This document shows, piece after piece, positions 8,517 through 32,587 of a stretch of 64,000 nt of DNA (positions within the stretch are counted from its first letter, which is position 1; every line of letters starts with the position of its first letter). A program made the translations under genes and the position numbers. The DNA is from Xanthomonas albilineans (GTDB lineage: Bacteria > Pseudomonadota > Gammaproteobacteria > Xanthomonadales > Xanthomonadaceae): positions 1-64,000 of the forward strand of contig NZ_MDCB01000005.1 in assembly GCF_002939705.1 (NCBI RefSeq), in the 5' to 3' direction. The notes below the pieces were generated by a model. It had not been told where the DNA came from. It saw only the letters and a program-made list of their open reading frames with translations, and searched no databases.

Positions 8517-8951
8517 ATGCGAAATCTCCGCTCCATCACCCGTTCCCCCTCCGCCGCGCGACAGTCCGGTATGAGTCTGCTGGAAATCATCATCGTCATC
8601 GTGCTGATCGGCGCGGTGCTGACTCTGGTTGGCAGCCGCGTGCTCGGTGGTGCCGATCGCGGCAAGGCCAATCTGGCCAAGTCGCAGATCCAGACCCTGG
8701 CCGGCAAAATCGACAACTACCAGTTGGATACCGGCAAGCTGCCATCCAAGCTCGACGATCTGGTCACCGCGCCAGGCGGTGTCAATGGCTGGCTGGGTCC
8801 GTATGCCAAACCTGCCGAACTCAACGACCCATGGGGCCATCCGATCGAATACAAGGTGCCCGGCGACGGTCGTCCGTTCGATCTGATCAGCCTGGGCAAG
8901 GATGGTCAGCCCGGCGGCAGTAGCTACGACGCGGATATCAAGTACGAGTGA
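8517..8951 (+). CDS. xpsG: Major pseudopilin XpsG (GspG)
   Basis: Major pseudopilin that forms the type II secretion piston. 144 residues from ATG 8517; a longer in-frame ORF from 8349 would extend the leader implausibly. The type III signal is clear: the prepilin peptidase site SG|MSLLE places Gly18 at -1, Met19 at +1 and the conserved Glu at +5 (Glu23), followed by the hydrophobic helix. The rest matches GspG, including the GPY and DPWG(H)P calcium-loop region and the GGSSYDADIKYE ending. It is separated from xpsF by 300 bases (8217-8516), the longest gap in the operon, in which I see no gene and no clear promoter. Confidence 0.96.
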   Translation: MRNLRSITRSPSAARQSGMSLLEIIIVIVLIGAVLTLVGSRVLGGADRGKANLAKSQIQTLAGKIDNYQLDTGKLPSKLDDLVTAPGGVNGWLGPYAKPAELNDPWGHPIEYKVPGDGRPFDLISLGKDGQPGGSSYDADIKYE

Positions 8952-8960
8952 TCCGACGCC

Positions 8961-9479
8961 GTGATTCAGGCCCTTGCCGGCGGTCTGCGCTCGGGCGCGC
9001 GGGAGCGCGTCGCGGTGCCATGTGCGCGCATGCGCGGCGTGTCGCTGCTGGAGATGTTGCTGGTGATCGGTCTGATCGCGATGGCTGCGGTTCTGGCCGC
9101 GTCGGTCTTGAGTGGCGGTATCGATGGGATGCGTTTGCGCTCGGCGGCCAAGGAAATCGCTGCGCAGTTGCGCTATACGCGTGCACAGGCCATCGCCACC
9201 GGACAGCCACAGCGGTTTCTGATCGATCCGCAGATGCACACCTGGCAGGCGCCCAATGGCCGTCACGGCGAAATCCCGCCGTCGCTGACGGTGCGTTTCA
9301 GCGGTGCGCGTCAGGCGCAGCAGCGCGAAGGCCAAGGTGCCATCGCGTTCTTCGAAGACGGCGCCGCCACGGGCGGACGCATCGAACTGCAAGCGCGGCA
9401 GACACTTTGGCGTATCGATGTGAGCTGGCTCACCGGCGCGGTCAAGGTGGGGCGGCCGCCGCAGCAGGATCGGCCATGA
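8961..9479 (+). CDS. xpsH: Minor pseudopilin XpsH (GspH)
   Basis: Minor pseudopilin of the type II secretion tip/pseudopilus. 172 residues from GTG 8961. The prepilin site is MRG|VSLLEML with Glu at +5 (about residue 31), then a long hydrophobic helix and a small beta-rich GspH domain. The start is uncertain: the ribosome site before 8961 is weak and in-frame alternatives exist nearer the cleavage site, but the ATG at 9030 would leave only a three-residue leader. Its stop overlaps the xpsI start by 4 bases (ATGA), implying translational coupling. Confidence 0.92.
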   Translation: MIQALAGGLRSGARERVAVPCARMRGVSLLEMLLVIGLIAMAAVLAASVLSGGIDGMRLRSAAKEIAAQLRYTRAQAIATGQPQRFLIDPQMHTWQAPNGRHGEIPPSLTVRFSGARQAQQREGQGAIAFFEDGAATGGRIELQARQTLWRIDVSWLTGAVKVGRPPQQDRP

Positions 9480-26229: not shown

Positions 26230-26268
26230 TATACAACTGTATAGACATTTGTCTCTGTGTCTGTATAG
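26230..26268. promoter_or_regulatory. Putative FabR/DesT-type operator between the repressor and the desaturase operon
   Basis: A perfect 14-nt palindrome TATACA-AC-TGTATA at 26230-26243 abuts a second one, AGACA-TT-TGTCT, at 26243-26254. CTGTATAG occurs at 26237-26244 and again at 26261-26268. The TACA-NN-TGTA core resembles the FabR-type half-site. This is the only AT-rich stretch here, so the promoters probably overlap it. Confidence 0.6.
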
Positions 26269-26276
26269 TGGATGCC

Positions 26277-27353
26277 ATGAATGCCGTCCGTCGTCCCGCC
26301 AAGCTCCGTCCCGCCATCAGCGCGTTGCACGCTTGGGTGCGGCCGGATGTCTTCGATTTCTGGTCCACACGCCTGCATCCGTTGTGGACTTGGCAGCGTC
26401 CACGTGCGCGCTTGCTGCAGCGCGAGGCTGCCAGCAGCGACGCGGTGACCCTGGTGTTGCAACCCAACCGTCACTGGCGTGGGCTGCGCGCCGGTCAGCA
26501 TGTGGAACTGGGCGTGGAGATTGATGGGCGTCGGTTGTTACGCAGTTACAGCCCCACGCGATTGCCGGACGGGCGCCTGGCGATCACGGTCAAGGTGATC
26601 GACGGTGGCCGTGTCAGCCAATATCTGGCCAGTACGGCGCGGATCGGCGAGGTGTTCGAGCTTGGCCAGGCTTTCGGCGAGATGGTGCTGCCGGCCGCGC
26701 CGCAGGGGCACTGGTTGCTGCTGGCGGCTGGTAGCGGCATCACCCCGATGCGTGCGCTGTTGCGGCAGTTGGCGGCGGACGGGATGCCTGCCGATGTCGA
26801 CTTGATTTATTGGGCGCGCCGCCACGACCAAGTGTGCTTCCGCGACGAACTGCAGGCGCTGGCCGCCGCGCATCCGCGCTTTCGCCTGCAACTGGCGATC
26901 ACCGGCGAGGGCGATTCTCCCGCGCCGCGGGTGGATGCGCTGCCGCTGGACCATCTGCACGGCCTGGAACAGGCACAGGTGCTGGCCTGCGGCCCGGGAG
27001 GTTTCGTGCAGGCGGCGCGTGCACGTCTACAGCCGCATGTCGCGCGCTTCCAGGCCGAGGCGTTCAGCCCGCCGCCGGCGCTGGACGACACCGAGCAGGG
27101 CACGGTCGCGGTGACCCTGGCGCGCAGCGGCCGTGTGCTGCAACTGCCGCGCGGGCAATCGTTGCTCAGCGCGCTGGAAGCCGAGGGCCTGCGGCCCAAG
27201 CATGGCTGCCGCATGGGGATCTGTAACAGCTGCGCCTGCGGCAAGCAGTCCGGTGCGACCCGCGACCTGCTCAGCGGCGTCCACACCACCGAACCCGGTT
27301 CGCTGAAGCTGTGCATCAACAGCGCCAGCAGCGACCTGATCTTGGACCTTTGA
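26277..27353 (+). CDS. Ferredoxin reductase partner of the acyl desaturase (DesC-like)
   Basis: Electron-transfer flavoprotein, 358 residues from ATG 26277 (a GTG at 26268 lies inside the operator repeat). FAD-binding domain (about 45-140; RSYSPTR is the flavin motif), NAD-binding domain (about 145-250; AAGSGITPMRALL and CGPGGF), then a plant-type 2Fe-2S domain. The cluster ligands are Cys311, Cys316 and Cys319 (C-x4-C-x2-C) and Cys346. It would take electrons from NAD(P)H to the desaturase encoded 11 bases downstream. Confidence 0.92.
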   Translation: MNAVRRPAKLRPAISALHAWVRPDVFDFWSTRLHPLWTWQRPRARLLQREAASSDAVTLVLQPNRHWRGLRAGQHVELGVEIDGRRLLRSYSPTRLPDGRLAITVKVIDGGRVSQYLASTARIGEVFELGQAFGEMVLPAAPQGHWLLLAAGSGITPMRALLRQLAADGMPADVDLIYWARRHDQVCFRDELQALAAAHPRFRLQLAITGEGDSPAPRVDALPLDHLHGLEQAQVLACGPGGFVQAARARLQPHVARFQAEAFSPPPALDDTEQGTVAVTLARSGRVLQLPRGQSLLSALEAEGLRPKHGCRMGICNSCACGKQSGATRDLLSGVHTTEPGSLKLCINSASSDLILDL

Positions 27354-27364
27354 AGGACTTTTCC

Positions 27365-28489
27365 ATGGCGACTCCCCGCAACCGCGCACTGACTCCGGCC
27401 GAATTGCAAGCGTTCGGCGATGAACTGGACGCGCTGCGTACGCGCACACTCGCCGACTTGGGTGCGCGCGATGCGCGCTACATCCGTCGCATCGTCGCGG
27501 CGGTGCGCTACACCGGTCTGGCGGGACGCGCGTTGCTGTTCCTGGGCGCGTTCGTGCACAGTGTTTTGCTGCCGGCGTGGATCGCTGGTGTGCTGTTGCT
27601 CACTTTGTCCAAGATCTTGGAGAACATGGAGCTGGGCCACAACGTCATGCACGGCCAGTACGACTGGATGGGCGATGCGCAGTTGAACGGCAATACCTAC
27701 GAATGGGACATCGTCGCCACTGGCGAGAACTGGCGTAAGACGCACAATTTCAAGCACCACACCTACACCAACGTGCGCGGCATGGACGATGACATCGGCT
27801 ACGGCCTGTTGCGCATCTTCCCCGAGCAGCGCTGGCGTCCGTTCTACCTGGCGCAGCCATTCATCGCGGTGGTATTCGCGGTGCTGTTCGAATGGGGCGT
27901 GGCGATCCAAGACCTGCGTCTGGGCCGCTGGTTCGCGGGCAAGATGAAGCCCGGTCAGTTGCGCCGTGCGTTCGCTCCGGTCGGGCGCAAGATGGGGCGG
28001 CAGATCATCAAGGACTACGTGGTGTTTCCGGCGCTGGCCGGCCCGTTCTTCCTGCCGGTGTTGCTGGGGAACTTGGTCGCCAACGTGTTGCGCAGCATCT
28101 GGACGTTCGTGATCATTTTCTGCGGTCACTTCACCGCCGAAGTCGAGACGTTTTCCAAGGACTCGATCAAAAACGAGTCGCGTGGTCACTGGTATCTGCG
28201 CCAGTTGCGTGGTTCGTCCAATCTGGCAGGCGGCAAGTTGCTGAATCTGCTCTCGGGCAATCTGAGCCATCAGATCGAGCACCATTTCTACCCTGATGTG
28301 CCGGCCAACCGCTATGCGTCGCTGGCGCTGGAGGTGCGCAAGATCTGTGCGCGTTACGGTCAGCACTACAACACCGGGTCGCTGCCGCGGCAGTTCGGCC
28401 AGGTAATGTGGCGGATCGTGCGGCATGCCTTCCCCAGCCGGCCACGGCCGGCGCGTGCCTTGCGGGTCGAGGTGCAACAAGCCGGTTGA
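27365..28489 (+). CDS. Membrane acyl-lipid/acyl-CoA fatty acid desaturase (DesB-like)
   Basis: Integral-membrane diiron desaturase that introduces a double bond into acyl chains. 374 residues. The three histidine boxes are complete: HNVMH (92-96), HNFKHH (127-132) and HQIEHH (302-307, followed by FYP). Hydrophobic stretches near 55-85, 160-180 and 220-255 form the membrane part. An 11-base gap from the reductase indicates an operon. With the divergent FabR/DesT-type repressor it makes an oxygen-dependent route for tuning membrane unsaturation. Confidence 0.94.
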   Translation: MATPRNRALTPAELQAFGDELDALRTRTLADLGARDARYIRRIVAAVRYTGLAGRALLFLGAFVHSVLLPAWIAGVLLLTLSKILENMELGHNVMHGQYDWMGDAQLNGNTYEWDIVATGENWRKTHNFKHHTYTNVRGMDDDIGYGLLRIFPEQRWRPFYLAQPFIAVVFAVLFEWGVAIQDLRLGRWFAGKMKPGQLRRAFAPVGRKMGRQIIKDYVVFPALAGPFFLPVLLGNLVANVLRSIWTFVIIFCGHFTAEVETFSKDSIKNESRGHWYLRQLRGSSNLAGGKLLNLLSGNLSHQIEHHFYPDVPANRYASLALEVRKICARYGQHYNTGSLPRQFGQVMWRIVRHAFPSRPRPARALRVEVQQAG

Positions 28490-28843: not shown

Positions 28844-30280
28844 ATGCCCCGTTCGCTGCTGCGCCAACTCCTGTTGATCTGGATCGTCATCGTCGCCGCC
28901 TGCGTGGGCATGGCGGTGGTGCTGGTCGGGCTGTATCGGCACAGCGAGGGCGTGCGCGCGCAGCGGGCGCAAGCGCAGTTGCAGGAGGTCTGCGCACACA
29001 TGGTCCAGCGCTACAACGGCGCCAGCGTCGCCGCGCACGGCAGCGATGGCACCGGCCTGGCGGCGGTGGTGACCCAATTGGTTCTGGCCGATGCCGCCGG
29101 CGTTGAAGGCGGCATCTGGAACCGTCAGCACGGCTTCCTGGCTTATGCCTACCCGACCTATGATGGCAGCGAGCACAAAACCGACGTGCCCGTGGCCGAA
29201 CGCGCGGTGATCGTCGCCACCGCACAGCGCGGCGTCGATGCGCACCAGGCGGTGACATACCGGCGCGACGGGCAGCGCGAGACCTTGCTGATCGCCGCGT
29301 GTCCGCTGGATCGCCATGCCGTGGCCTGGACCATGACCCGGGTCGCTTCCAGCGATGCTGCGGCCAGTCTACCGCTGGCGTTGGGCATGGCGCTGATTCT
29401 GGCCTTGGTGGTGGGGTCGGCGCTGGCCCTGGGCTGGGTGGTGCGGCGCTGGAGCCAGCGCCTGCGGCGTATCCAGCAGGCGCTGGCGACGCCGGCCGAA
29501 ATCCCCGTCATCCCCGCGACCGGCGCACCGGAACTGGACCGGCTCGGCGCGGCGGTCACCGACTACGCACAGCGTAGTGCGCAGGCGTTGGCGCAGACGC
29601 GCCGGCTCGGCGAGGAACTGTCGCGGCACGAGCGGCTGGTCGCGCTCGGGCGCATGACCGCGACCGTGGCGCACGAGATCCGCAACCCGATCGCGACCTT
29701 GCGTCTGGCGTTGGAGAACCAGATCGCAGCGGGCGGGGATGCATTCGACGATGCCCAGGCGCAACTGATGCTGACGCAGATCCAGCGCCTGGACGGAGTG
29801 GTCGAAAGTCTGCTTGGCATGGTCCAGCCGATCCGCTTGCAGCAGCACACGGTGGAACTGCGGGCTTGGCTGCAGGCGTTGCTGGACCCGGCCGAATGGG
29901 ACGCGCAAGTGCCGCTGATTGCACTGCATCTGGACGCGGCACCAGCGCAGTGGAGGCTGGATCCACTGCAGGCTGCGCGTGCCTTGCATAATTTGTTGCG
30001 CAACGCATTGCAGCACGCCGCGCCAGGCACCGAGGTGACCCTGGCCGCGCATGCCGACGCGGACCTGCTCCGATTGAGCGTGTGCAACCGCGGCGAACCG
30101 GTTCTCGCGCCGGTCGCCGCACACTTGTTCGAGCCATTCGCCAGCGGTCGCAGCGATGGCAATGGCCTGGGCCTGGCATTGGTGCGCGAAATCGCCCGCG
30201 CACATGGTGGCGAGGCGCGCTACACGCACCACGACGGCATCACCACCTTCACCCTGGAGTTGCCATGGCGCGCATCTTGA
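28844..30280 (+). CDS. Sensor histidine kinase of an NtrB/NtrC-like pair
   Basis: Inner-membrane sensor kinase, 478 residues from ATG 28844 (AAAGG at 28833-28837). Membrane helices about 9-30 and 182-205 enclose a ~150-residue periplasmic sensor domain. A HAMP-like linker, then HisKA with the phosphorylated His277 in VAHEIRNP, and a HATPase domain (NLLRNALQHA as N box, DGNGLGLALVREI as G2 box). It resembles GHKL kinases that partner sigma-54 activators. It overlaps the response regulator gene by 16 bases. The stimulus is unknown. Confidence 0.93.
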   Translation: MPRSLLRQLLLIWIVIVAACVGMAVVLVGLYRHSEGVRAQRAQAQLQEVCAHMVQRYNGASVAAHGSDGTGLAAVVTQLVLADAAGVEGGIWNRQHGFLAYAYPTYDGSEHKTDVPVAERAVIVATAQRGVDAHQAVTYRRDGQRETLLIAACPLDRHAVAWTMTRVASSDAAASLPLALGMALILALVVGSALALGWVVRRWSQRLRRIQQALATPAEIPVIPATGAPELDRLGAAVTDYAQRSAQALAQTRRLGEELSRHERLVALGRMTATVAHEIRNPIATLRLALENQIAAGGDAFDDAQAQLMLTQIQRLDGVVESLLGMVQPIRLQQHTVELRAWLQALLDPAEWDAQVPLIALHLDAAPAQWRLDPLQAARALHNLLRNALQHAAPGTEVTLAAHADADLLRLSVCNRGEPVLAPVAAHLFEPFASGRSDGNGLGLALVREIARAHGGEARYTHHDGITTFTLELPWRAS

Positions 30281-31602
30281 TCATCGACGACGACCAGGCG
30301 TTTCTCGCCACGCTGCAGGCCACGTTGCGCTCGTTCGGTCACGAGGCGATTGCGCTGGCCGATCCACAGGCAGGGCTGCTACGGTTGGGCGAGGGCGATA
30401 TCGATCTGGTCTTCGTCGATTTCCGTATGCCGGGGATGGATGGCATCGCGCTGATGCGCGCGCGCCAGAACGATGTGCGTGCCGCGTGCGTGCCGTTGGT
30501 GATGCTCACCGCCCATGCGTCCAGCGGCAATACCATCGAAGCGATGAAACTCGGCGCGTTCGATCATCTGGTCAAGCCAGTTGGCCGTGCCGACATCGCG
30601 GCGGTGGTCGAACGCGCACTGCTCAGTCGTGCCGAGCAGGCCGCGACATCCGTGCCGGCGACGCCTGCCGAGGACGACGATGCACTGCTCGGTCACAGCG
30701 CGGCGATGCGCACCGTGCATAAGCGTATCGGCCTGGCTGCGGCCTCCGATCTGCCGGTGTTGATCAGCGGCGAGACTGGCACGGGCAAAGAGTTGGTGGC
30801 GCGCGCCTTGCATCGTGCCAGCGCCCGCGCCGGGCAGCCCTTCGTTGCGGTCAACTGCGCGGCCATTCCCAGCGAACTGATGGAGAGCGAGCTGTTCGGT
30901 TACCGCAAGGGGGCGTTCTCCGGCGCGGTCGCCGACCGCAGCGGCCTGATTCGCGATGCCGATGGTGGCACGTTGTTCCTCGACGAGATCGGCGACATGC
31001 CATTGCCGATGCAGGCCAAACTGCTGCGCTTTCTGCAGGAGGGCGAGGTGTCGCCGCTGGGCGGGCGCGGTGCGCAGAAAGTGGACGTGCGCGTGATCGC
31101 CGCAACGCACCGCGATCTGGCCCAGGCGGTGGAGAAGGGGGGCTTCCGTGGCGATCTGCGCTACCGGCTCAACGTGGTGCCGATCGAATTGCCGCCGCTG
31201 CGCGAGCGCGGCGACGATATCCTGCTGCTGGCGCAACACTTTCTGGAGACTGGCGCGACCAGTGTGCAGACGTTATCGGCCACGGCGCAGGCACGGCTGC
31301 GCGTCTATCCCTGGCCGGGCAACGTGCGCGAATTGCGTAACGCCATGCAGCGTTGCCAGGTGCTGGTGCGCGCGCCGGTGATCGAAGCGCACGATCTGGA
31401 CGAACTGCTGGCCGAGCCGAACGATGCGGCGGCTGTCGACACCGATGCGATGACCCTGCCGCAGGCGATTGCGCAACTGGAGCGACGCATGATCCAAGCG
31501 GCGCTGGCGCACACCCACGGCAATCGCGCCGAGGCCGCGCGCCGGCTCGGCATCCATCGTCAGTTGCTGTACCGCAAGCTCGACGAATACGGCCTGCAGT
31601 GA
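30265..31602 (+). CDS. Sigma-54-dependent response regulator (NtrC family)
   Basis: 445-residue activator: receiver domain (about 1-120, phosphoacceptor Asp52 in [12 protein letters not shown]), AAA+ sigma-54 interaction domain (about 145-375, Walker A GETGTGKE at 169-176) and a C-terminal Fis-type helix-turn-helix (about 400-442, [21 protein letters not shown]). The sigma-54 contact loop is GAFSGA (216-221) rather than the usual GAFTGA. The start overlaps the kinase gene. The next gene has a sigma-54 promoter between, so it is the obvious target. Confidence 0.95.
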
Positions 31603-31650
31603 GTGTCCGCTGCGTGTGGTACTGGGTGAAAAGGTGTCCGCAAAACGGAC
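31603..31650. promoter_or_regulatory. Candidate upstream activator sites for the NtrC-like regulator
   Basis: The octamer GTGTCCGC occurs at 31603-31610 and again at 31634-31641. That is 31 bp apart, three helical turns, so both lie on one DNA face. The second is part of an inverted repeat GTCCG-CAAAA-CGGAC (31636-31650). They lie about 100-150 bp upstream of the predicted sigma-54 start site, the usual enhancer distance. Confidence 0.5.
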
Positions 31651-31707
31651 GGAAGTGGATGGAATGCAGACGCCGCGATCCCCGGAGTTCTATTGTATTT
31701 TCTTTTA

Positions 31708-31720
31708 AATCAAATATTTG
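31708..31720 (+). promoter_or_regulatory. IHF-consensus site
   Basis: The 13 bases from 31708 match the IHF consensus WATCAANNNNTTR at every fixed position, in an AT-rich island (31690-31720) within very GC-rich DNA. It lies between the candidate activator sites and the -24/-12 promoter, where IHF commonly bends DNA for sigma-54 activation, though it is close to the -24 element. Confidence 0.55.
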
Positions 31721-31725
31721 GAGGT

Positions 31726-31741
31726 TGGCACGGTGCCTGCT
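31726..31741 (+). promoter_or_regulatory. Sigma-54 (-24/-12) promoter
   Basis: TGGCACG-GTGC-CTGCT fits the sigma-54 consensus TGGCACG-N4-TTGCW with one mismatch. The invariant GG (31727-31728) and GC (31739-31740) have exactly 10 bases between them. Transcription would start near 31752, about 37 bases before the next start codon. Confidence 0.75.
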
Positions 31742-31788
31742 CTATTTCCACTGCAAGCGGCACTCCCTGCCGCTGTGGAGAACCTCTC

Positions 31789-32541
31789 ATGATCCGTCGT
31801 AGCGCACTCGCTCTGTCCCTGGTTTTTGTTGCCACCACTGCCGCCGCGCAGGTGTATCCGCCGCCCGCACCGCCGCCTGTCCCGCCCGCACCGCTGGGAG
31901 CCGACGCGCCCGTCGCCGCCACGCAGGTGCAGGTGGACGGTACCGTCGAACGCTTCATGATCAACCCGAATGGCGATGTCGATGGGATGTGGTTGATGGA
32001 CGGTACCCAGGTCAACTTCCCGCCGCATCTGTCGGCCGACCTGCAAGCGGCGGTGCGCCGTGGCGATGCGGTGTCGGTGCAGGGCTATCGTCTGGGCAGC
32101 CTGCCGGTGTTGCAGGCGAGCACGATTACCGCGCGCCGCAGCGGTAAGCAGGTGGTGGACCGCCCGCCGAACCCGATGACGCCGCCGCCCGCGCCTCCAG
32201 CGCCGCCGTCGCTCACTCCGCTGCAGGCCGATGGCCGTATCGAACGGTTGATCTACGGGCCGCGTGGCGAAACCGCTGGCGTGCTGCTCAGCGACGGCAC
32301 GGTGGTGCGAATGCCGCCTCCGGCTGCGTTGCAATACAGCGAACTGCTGCGTACTGGCGCGCGTCTGAGTGTCAGCGGCTTCGGTGTGATCACCAATGTG
32401 GGGCGTGCGGTGGAAGCGACGCAAGTGGGCCGCGACCGCGCCTCGCAGCAGGGGGTGTTCATGCATTCCGTCCCGGCCCCGCTGCCGGCAGTGCAGGGAC
32501 AGCCTGGCGTTCCGGCCGTGCCGCCGCCGGCTTCGCGCTGA
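31789..32541 (+). CDS. Exported protein with two tandem OB-like repeats
   Basis: 250 residues from ATG 31789 with GGAG at 31777-31780. A signal peptide (about 1-20, ending AAAQ) leads to a Pro-rich linker, then two homologous ~65-residue repeats (49-113 and 148-212) separated by another Pro-rich linker. Both repeats share the pattern (V/A)DG.(V/I)ER, G.....L.DGT.V..PP, and a closing segment with (V/L)SV.G. This beta-rich pattern resembles small OB-fold periplasmic proteins. No catalytic motif. Its position behind a sigma-54 promoter and an NtrC-like regulator implies stimulus-dependent expression. Function unknown; a periplasmic binding or stress protein is one possibility. Confidence 0.8.
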   Translation: MIRRSALALSLVFVATTAAAQVYPPPAPPPVPPAPLGADAPVAATQVQVDGTVERFMINPNGDVDGMWLMDGTQVNFPPHLSADLQAAVRRGDAVSVQGYRLGSLPVLQASTITARRSGKQVVDRPPNPMTPPPAPPAPPSLTPLQADGRIERLIYGPRGETAGVLLSDGTVVRMPPPAALQYSELLRTGARLSVSGFGVITNVGRAVEATQVGRDRASQQGVFMHSVPAPLPAVQGQPGVPAVPPPASR

Positions 32542-32561: not shown

Positions 32562-32587
32562 CGTGCCCGCCGCATGCGGCGGGCACG
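32562..32587 (+). terminator. Strong hairpin after the exported repeat protein
   Basis: A perfect 12-bp inverted repeat (CGTGCCCGCCGC at 32562-32573, GCGGCGGGCACG at 32576-32587) with a 2-base centre, 20 bases after the stop. It separates this gene from the convergent glgX. Confidence 0.65.

What the first reader, a model, noticed from the sequence alone, without database searches (positions are those of the whole stretch)
31603..32541. Local sigma-54 circuit driving a secreted duplicated-domain protein
Directly behind an NtrB/NtrC-like pair lies a near-consensus -24/-12 promoter (31726-31741). A perfect IHF-consensus site precedes it, and two GTGTCCGC octamers sit 31 bp apart (three turns) with an inverted repeat. 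The only gene it can drive nearby is a signal-peptide protein with two OB-like repeats. A complete sensor-regulator-target unit in 3.7 kb with an unknown product is unusual and testable.
Basis: partly seen in the sequence, partly recalled or inferred. Interest (0 to 1): 0.7.

Follow-up and report, generated by a model that had tools for sequence, protein, structure and literature searches.

The report
Dedicated sigma-54 envelope-sensing gene circuit
A membrane sensor and its partner activator appear to switch on, through one precisely spaced and widely conserved control region, an exported protein of unknown function; comparison with distant bacteria indicates that the circuit is real and that the copy here has lost parts most relatives keep, but what it does is still unknown.

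Summary
In the window alone the -24/-12 and the octamer occur about as often as chance predicts. Across relatives the case is strong. Regulator and exported protein occur in the same 17 of 60 genomes, with the sensor beside the regulator in all 17. Related units occur in Alphaproteobacteria and in distant members of the window's class. In 27 of 29 promoters read, a TGTC-N9-GACA palindrome starts 90-93 bp before the -24 element, with a second, often degenerate site 20-23 bp nearer. In one draft genome the target lies on another contig than the regulator yet has the same site and promoter; in another, two genes each have a copy.

Corrections: the activator site is the palindrome at 31635-31651 plus a weak site at 31656-31672, not two octamers 31 bp apart. 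The kinase is not NtrB-like; two cysteines of its extracytoplasmic domain are invariant in 29 of 29 rows. The unit is reduced: 15 of 17 Xanthomonadaceae copies add a cytosolic twin and an MFS transporter. The product matches no Pfam or NCBIfam family; an OB fold could not be tested. Function is inferred.

The parts
28844..30280 (+). Sensor histidine kinase, 478 aa: N-terminal membrane helix, extracytoplasmic domain of about 150 aa with C50 and C153, HisKA and HATPase_c
   Evidence: Pfam HisKA and HATPase_c; topology read from the sequence (inferred); C50 and C153 invariant in 29 of 29 aligned rows
30265..31602 (+). NtrC-type response regulator, 445 aa: receiver, sigma-54 AAA+ (GAFSGA loop at residue 216) and Fis-type HTH; overlaps the kinase gene by 16 bp
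   Evidence: Pfam; motifs; one supported clade with 12 other module regulators, 100/99
31635..31651 (+). Distal activator site TGTCCGCAAAACGGACG, near-palindrome; starts 91 bp before the -24 TGG
   Evidence: Same position (90-93 bp) in 27 of 29 promoters; GTCYGCAAARCGGAC occurs once in the whole own genome
31656..31672 (+). Proximal, degenerate activator site TGGATGGAATGCAGACG (3 of 8 mismatches), 21 bp downstream of the distal one
   Evidence: Same position in relatives; better matches (0-1 mismatch) in L005, L006, L007, L008, L188 and L189
31708..31720 (+). IHF-like site AATCAAATATTTG
   Evidence: Strict match in 14 of 16 Xanthomonadaceae loci at the same position; 0 of 6 other loci examined; seven further promoters not examined
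31726..31740 (+). -24/-12 promoter TGGCACGGTGCCTGC; predicted start near 31752 (inferred)
   Evidence: At most 2 mismatches to consensus in all 16 aligned Xanthomonadaceae loci
31789..32541 (+). Exported protein, 250 aa, with signal-peptide-like start and two homologous domains (residues 49-124 and 147-216), Pro-rich linker and tail
   Evidence: No Pfam or NCBIfam family; repeats confirmed; dN/dS 0.14 against G016
31603..31610 (+). Upstream GTGTCCGC octamer of the finding; considered incidental
   Evidence: 4 to 8 mismatches at that position in 18 of the 19 other loci readable there; octamer at chance frequency in the window

Best explanation
This is a dedicated, largely self-contained sigma-54 two-component circuit. 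A membrane kinase senses an envelope condition through an extracytoplasmic domain with an invariant cysteine pair (a disulfide, redox or metal switch is inferred). It phosphorylates the NtrC-type regulator encoded next to it (inferred from overlapping genes and domain make-up). The regulator binds a TGTC-N9-GACA palindrome and a second site two helical turns nearer the promoter, with the DNA perhaps bent by IHF in Xanthomonas (inferred), and drives sigma-54 RNA polymerase at the -24/-12 promoter (inferred from sequence). The main output is an exported protein with two copies of an unnamed, possibly OB-like domain. In most Xanthomonadaceae relatives and several other bacteria the same gene run continues with a cytosolic twin and an MFS transporter, so the likely job is to bind a ligand on both sides of the inner membrane and move it out, as part of envelope homeostasis (a guess from anatomy). 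The copy in this window has lost the twin and the transporter but keeps sensor, regulator, control region and exported protein, the genes under purifying selection.
For: Regulator and exported protein occur in the same 17 of 60 genomes (the regulator search at E 1e-100 also gave one weaker hit, G059, 45% identity). Sensor, regulator and target together in all 17 (split over two contigs in G004) and in L005, L006, L007, L008, G577 and L188-L192. Distal palindrome at 90-93 bp in 27 of 29 promoters: 24 with at most 1 of 8 mismatches, 3 with 2; control: 0 of 35 promoter-like sites in 74 non-module NtrC-type loci. Target on another contig in draft genome G426 with CGTCTGCAAAGCGGACG 90 bp before TGGCACGCCGGTTGC. 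Two genes in G955 (L192), a CitMHS permease and the target, each with site and promoter. GTCYGCAAARCGGAC occurs exactly once genome-wide in 15 of the 17 module genomes. 13 module regulators form one clade, 100/99, on a tree of 42. dN/dS 0.14, 0.11 and 0.09 for target, regulator and kinase against G016. Two rpoN-type genes in the own genome. MFS in 15 of 17 Xanthomonadaceae module genomes and in L005, L006, L007, G577, L190, L191 and L192.
Against: No transcript or binding data. In the window alone the -24/-12 and the octamer are at chance frequency. L007 has only a 3-mismatch distal site (reached by 37% of shuffles), L008 and L152 are weak alone (6% and 5% of shuffles), and in L188 the site lies at 101 bp. 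Most of the 29 promoters come from close relatives, so they are not independent. Three -12 elements read TTGA, one GTGA and one TTGG, L005 has TGGTAT at -24 and one L192 promoter GGGCAC. G426 is a draft MAG, so contig separation is not proof of distance. Three genomes (G508, G456, G588) have the domain protein but no such kinase. The transport and redox steps are inference only; no fold or ligand is known.
Confidence: 0.8

Rival explanations
1. The control region is real, but the regulator also controls other operons; the exported protein is one of several outputs.
For: In G955 a CitMHS permease has its own copy of site and promoter; in G426 a target lies apart from the regulator. Degenerate sites elsewhere would be missed by an exact pattern.
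Against: GTCYGCAAARCGGAC occurs once in the own genome and once in each of 14 further module genomes; a looser GTCYGCNNNRCGGAC gives three places in the own genome, this one and two others not looked into.
Confidence: 0.3
2. The system is an envelope stress accessory of the ZraPSR type: the exported protein is a periplasmic chaperone or scavenger that also damps the kinase, with no transport role.
For: Same layout of membrane kinase, sigma-54 regulator and periplasmic product; ZraS is the best-scoring NCBIfam model for the kinase and ZraR the third for the regulator, both far under cut-off; the transporter can be lost while the exported protein stays.
Against: The exported protein matches no Pfam or NCBIfam family. 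A cytosolic twin and an MFS transporter accompany it in most Xanthomonadaceae copies.
Confidence: 0.3
3. The copy in this window is a decaying remnant with no remaining role.
For: No twin or transporter was found, and G016 keeps a broken piece of the twin gene; the upstream TPP-enzyme gene of 15 relatives was not found in the window or G016.
Against: All three genes are open and dN/dS against G016 is 0.09-0.14; promoter and distal site are kept.
Confidence: 0.12
4. The motif conservation is inherited background in a recent clade, not a regulatory site.
For: Seventeen of the 29 promoters are from one family and count as few independent cases.
Against: Palindrome and spacing persist in loci whose regulators are 50-58% identical to the window's and at a target away from the regulator. 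In the 16-locus alignment site and promoter are better conserved than the spacer (0.79 and 0.88 against 0.58).
Confidence: 0.04

Closest known systems
ZraPSR (zinc and envelope stress; sigma-54 dependent)
   Same: Membrane kinase, sigma-54 response regulator and a periplasmic product under its control (PMC4987338, passages)
   Different: zraP and zraSR have divergent promoters; here the product gene lies downstream and matches no family, and most Xanthomonadaceae relatives add a cytosolic twin and an MFS transporter
GlrK/GlrR (QseE/QseF; names partly recalled)
   Same: Sigma-54 response regulator; its listed site TGTC(N)10GACA resembles TGTC-N9-GACA (PMC4987338 table row)
   Different: GlrR is listed for the sRNA gene glmY; regulator score 366.3 against a 763 cut-off; site one base longer
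NtrB/NtrC nitrogen regulation
   Same: Regulator domain layout and sigma-54 activation
   Different: Regulator under the NtrC cut-off; kinase far under NtrB's
YgiW/VisP-type periplasmic OB proteins with a two-component system
   Same: Small exported protein tied to a two-component system (search listing only; OB nature of YgiW recalled)
   Different: The exported protein matched no Pfam family; two domains per chain; sigma-54 control

Membership tests
sigma-54 enhancer-binding response regulators | Receiver, AAA+ with GAFTGA-type loop, Fis-type HTH | tested here: met
   Pfam; GAFSGA, a variant said to keep activation in PMC4641369 (passages)
sigma-54 enhancer-binding response regulators | Target with -24/-12 promoter and upstream activator sites | tested here: met
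sigma-54 enhancer-binding response regulators | rpoN-dependent transcription | not testable with these tools
   No transcript data; two rpoN-type genes present
NtrB/NtrC | Scores over the curated equivalog cut-offs | tested here: not met
   442.3 against 558.6 and 62.8 against 240 bits
ZraPSR | Kinase and regulator over the ZraS and ZraR cut-offs | tested here: not met
   131.7 against 479 and 372.4 against 760 bits
ZraPSR | ZraP-type zinc-binding periplasmic protein | tested here: not met
   No NCBIfam hit at E 0.01 and no Pfam family over cut-off for the exported protein
GlrK/GlrR | Regulator over the GlrR cut-off | tested here: not met
   366.3 against 763 bits
OB-fold (BOF-like) proteins | Five-stranded OB barrel | tested here: inconclusive
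   No Pfam family over cut-off; profile search of solved structures best E 0.56, not significant; structure prediction off
IHF-assisted sigma-54 promoters | IHF consensus between activator site and promoter | tested here: inconclusive
   Strict consensus in 14 of 16 Xanthomonadaceae loci and 0 of 6 others; 7 further promoters not examined

The most novel reading that the evidence does not exclude
An undescribed, mobile five-gene sigma-54 envelope system spread across distant Proteobacteria: a cysteine-pair sensor kinase detects a redox or metal state, and twin proteins built from a new duplicated domain, one outside and one inside the inner membrane, bind the same ligand and work with an MFS exporter; the lineage here has pared it down to sensor, regulator and exported twin.
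Probability: 0.25. Interest if true: 0.7.

Novelty: new variant of a known kind. Interest (0 to 1): 0.5.

Why it matters
Many sigma-54 regulators have no known target or signal. Here sensor, regulator, binding site with fixed spacing, promoter and output can be read together and compared across distant groups, so the DNA code of one regulator family can be tested directly. It also gives a context and a regulator to a protein family that matched no Pfam or NCBIfam model, and a natural series from full gene run to reduced unit that shows which parts are kept longest.

Tried and rejected
Two octamers as tandem activator sites: rejected; at the -31 position 18 of the 19 other readable loci have 4 to 8 mismatches and G016 has one. 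NtrB identity: rejected. A second sigma-54 promoter before the kinase (28691, TGGCACAACAGATGC): the same scan showed no such site before the kinase gene in the other loci; taken as chance. The site match in G020: it lies after an efp-like ORF (name recalled), and no module gene or promoter match was found in the 5 kb fetched; taken as chance, as are the 3 matches of the reversed control pattern in 2 genomes. An MFS elsewhere in the own genome: none at E 1e-5 (the tool warns that an empty answer alone shows little). PDB profile searches for the exported protein and the sensor domain: best E 0.56 and 0.42, not significant. Literature: no paper in the library holds the three palindrome strings searched; searches for organism, regulon and module terms showed nothing on this unit in the titles and abstract starts listed. 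These cover only the open-licence library. The desaturase dN/dS came from a frame error of mine and is not used. In one search the automatic -24/-12 pick for L005 was wrong and the L155 stretch ran past the start codon; both were put right. In one search the best distal hit for L006 is a stray one at 99 bp; the 91-bp site is. Promoters of L005 and L192 depart from consensus and were taken as the fitting site in the interval, so choosing them was not blind.

Full report
Where it is. The window is contig C5, bases 1-64000, of a 3.68-Mb genome. No call gives the species name.

What is there. A sensor kinase (28844-30280) overlaps an NtrC-type regulator (30265-31602). After 186 bp comes a 250-aa exported protein (31789-32541), then a convergent ORF that looks like glgX (name recalled). 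The regulator has receiver, sigma-54 AAA+ and Fis-type domains. Its loop reads GAFSGA in all Xanthomonadaceae copies read, and GAFTGA (5) or GSFTGA (1) in the six other copies read; L188-L192 were not read for it. GAFSGA is among the variants said to keep activation (PMC4641369, passages). The exported protein has two homologous domains (hhalign 98.7%, E 2e-16) and no Pfam family over cut-off or NCBIfam hit.

Chance within the window. The -24/-12 pattern with up to one mismatch is found 4 times against 3.5 expected, and the octamer 6 times against 5.9.

Co-occurrence. The exported protein is found in 17 of 60 genomes, own included. The regulator at E 1e-100 is in the same 17 plus one weaker 45% hit in G059. 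The kinase lies beside the regulator in all 17; of the 43 other genomes, five were searched for the sensor domain and had none. In the genus as held, 16 of 20 genomes have the exported protein. Elsewhere it is sparse: 1 of 369 sampled in the class (own only), 9 of 398 sampled in the phylum (own, five of the same class, three others), and 5 of 337 sampled in the class of Bradyrhizobium G428.

Control region. In 16 aligned Xanthomonadaceae loci the -24/-12 core and a palindrome are islands of conservation: 0.88 and 0.79 mean identity against 0.58 for the spacer. Over 29 promoters (17 Xanthomonadaceae; L005, L006, L007, L008, L152 and L155; L188, L189, L190, L191 and two in L192) the distal TGTC-N9-GACA site starts 90-93 bp before the -24 TGG in 27. 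Of these, 24 have at most 1 of 8 mismatches and 3 have 2 (L006, L008, L152). The two exceptions are L007 (3 mismatches at 92) and L188 (0 mismatches, at 101). A second site lies 20-23 bp nearer the promoter, with 0-1 mismatch in L005, L006, L007, L008, L188 and L189 and 2-3 in the rest. As a control, 35 promoter-like sites in 74 other NtrC-type loci gave 0 palindromes with at most 1 mismatch at 88-93 bp. The exact pattern GTCYGCAAARCGGAC occurs once in each of 15 of the 17 module genomes; G006 and G016 differ by one base; the only other match among the 60 genomes is in G020 and looks like chance, since the reversed control pattern also gave 3 matches.

Two natural tests. In draft genome G426 the kinase-regulator pair (L004) is not followed by the target; the target lies on another contig and still carries CGTCTGCAAAGCGGACG 90 bp before TGGCACGCCGGTTGC. 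It is a MAG, so wrong binning cannot be excluded. In G955 (L192) a CitMHS-family permease stands between regulator and target, and each gene has its own site and promoter at 93 and 91 bp. Both are expected if the regulator reads this site, and not if the conservation is only linkage.

The larger unit. In 15 of 17 Xanthomonadaceae module genomes a second domain protein without a hydrophobic start follows, then an MFS transporter (15 of 17). The same order is in L005, L006 and G577. L007 has the MFS but no twin was found. L189 has a second domain protein but no MFS was found in the stretch; L190, L191 and L192 have the MFS; L188 showed neither; L008 ends at the contig edge. For the window genome and G016 neither twin nor MFS was found, apart from a broken piece of the twin in G016 (own genome searched for the MFS). 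A TPP-enzyme gene upstream of the kinase in the 15 others was not found in the window or G016. What remains is under purifying selection against G016: dN/dS 0.14 for the exported protein, 0.11 for the regulator, 0.09 for the kinase.

Ancestry. On a tree of 42 regulators (13 module, 29 of the 74 other loci) the module regulators form one clade (100/99), split into a Xanthomonadaceae side and a side of Alphaproteobacteria with the L004 MAG. L188-L192 came later and are not on the tree. Patchy distribution suggests transfer, but this was not tested.

How it likely works. Shown by sequence: the parts, their conservation, and the spacing of site and promoter. Inferred: phosphorelay between kinase and regulator, binding of the regulator to the palindrome, rpoN dependence, IHF bending (strict consensus in 14 of 16 Xanthomonadaceae loci, 0 of 6 others, 7 further promoters not examined), and the start near 31752. 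The sensor domain has two cysteines (C50, C153) invariant in 29 of 29 aligned rows, two of which are the same genome; this suggests a disulfide or metal switch. The product is probably a ligand binder of the envelope; the twin and transporter in relatives suggest handling of one ligand on both membrane faces. That last step is a guess that fits the anatomy.

Against it. No expression data exist here. Three genomes (G508, G456, G588) have the domain protein without the kinase, so the protein can live outside the circuit. Some promoters outside Xanthomonas depart from the -24/-12 consensus, and single distal sites in L007, L008 and L152 would not stand alone (37%, 6% and 5% of shuffles). The OB fold is untested.

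Compared with the known. It is laid out like ZraPSR (PMC4987338, passages) but fails its membership tests. Its site resembles GlrR's TGTC(N)10GACA, but the regulator is far under the GlrR cut-off. No description of this unit showed in the open-licence library searches (titles and abstract starts).

Verdict. On sequence evidence a real, conserved, dedicated sigma-54 circuit with an unnamed product, of a known general kind in a new arrangement.

Noticed in passing
window 32562-32587: A GC-rich perfect palindrome (CGTGCCCGCCGCATGCGGCGGGCACG) without a T-run follows the exported gene; two relatives looked at have a similar hairpin between the exported gene and its twin (L115, L122), perhaps an RNA processing or attenuation element.
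   Followed up: no
L113 3710-3775: Broken remnant of the cytosolic twin gene in G016, pointing to loss in this lineage; no remnant was recognised by eye in the window.
   Followed up: partly
L156, L157, L158, L193; genomes G508, G456, G588, G1108: Small genomes (2.0-2.5 Mb) with a single domain protein; G508, G456 and G588 lack the kinase. G797 and G1040 have the same coordinates as G456 and G588 and are probably the same genomes.
   Followed up: partly
L192 5722-6885: A CitMHS-family permease with its own copy of activator site and sigma-54-type promoter: a possible second output of the circuit in G955.
   Followed up: partly
window 26268-28489: Ferredoxin-reductase-like and fatty-acid desaturase genes lie upstream of the kinase; in G017 two ORFs of matching size sit upstream with two more ORFs before the kinase, so the window copy may carry a deletion. 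The match was not tested by alignment.
   Followed up: partly
L122 about 8600-9243: A NasT-like ANTAR regulator and a siroheme-synthase-like ORF lie downstream of the MFS in L122 (read from ORF sequences by recall; no family search).
   Followed up: no
own genome G000:C5:215453 and 225130: Two further matches to the looser pattern GTCYGCNNNRCGGAC; their surroundings were not looked at.
   Followed up: no
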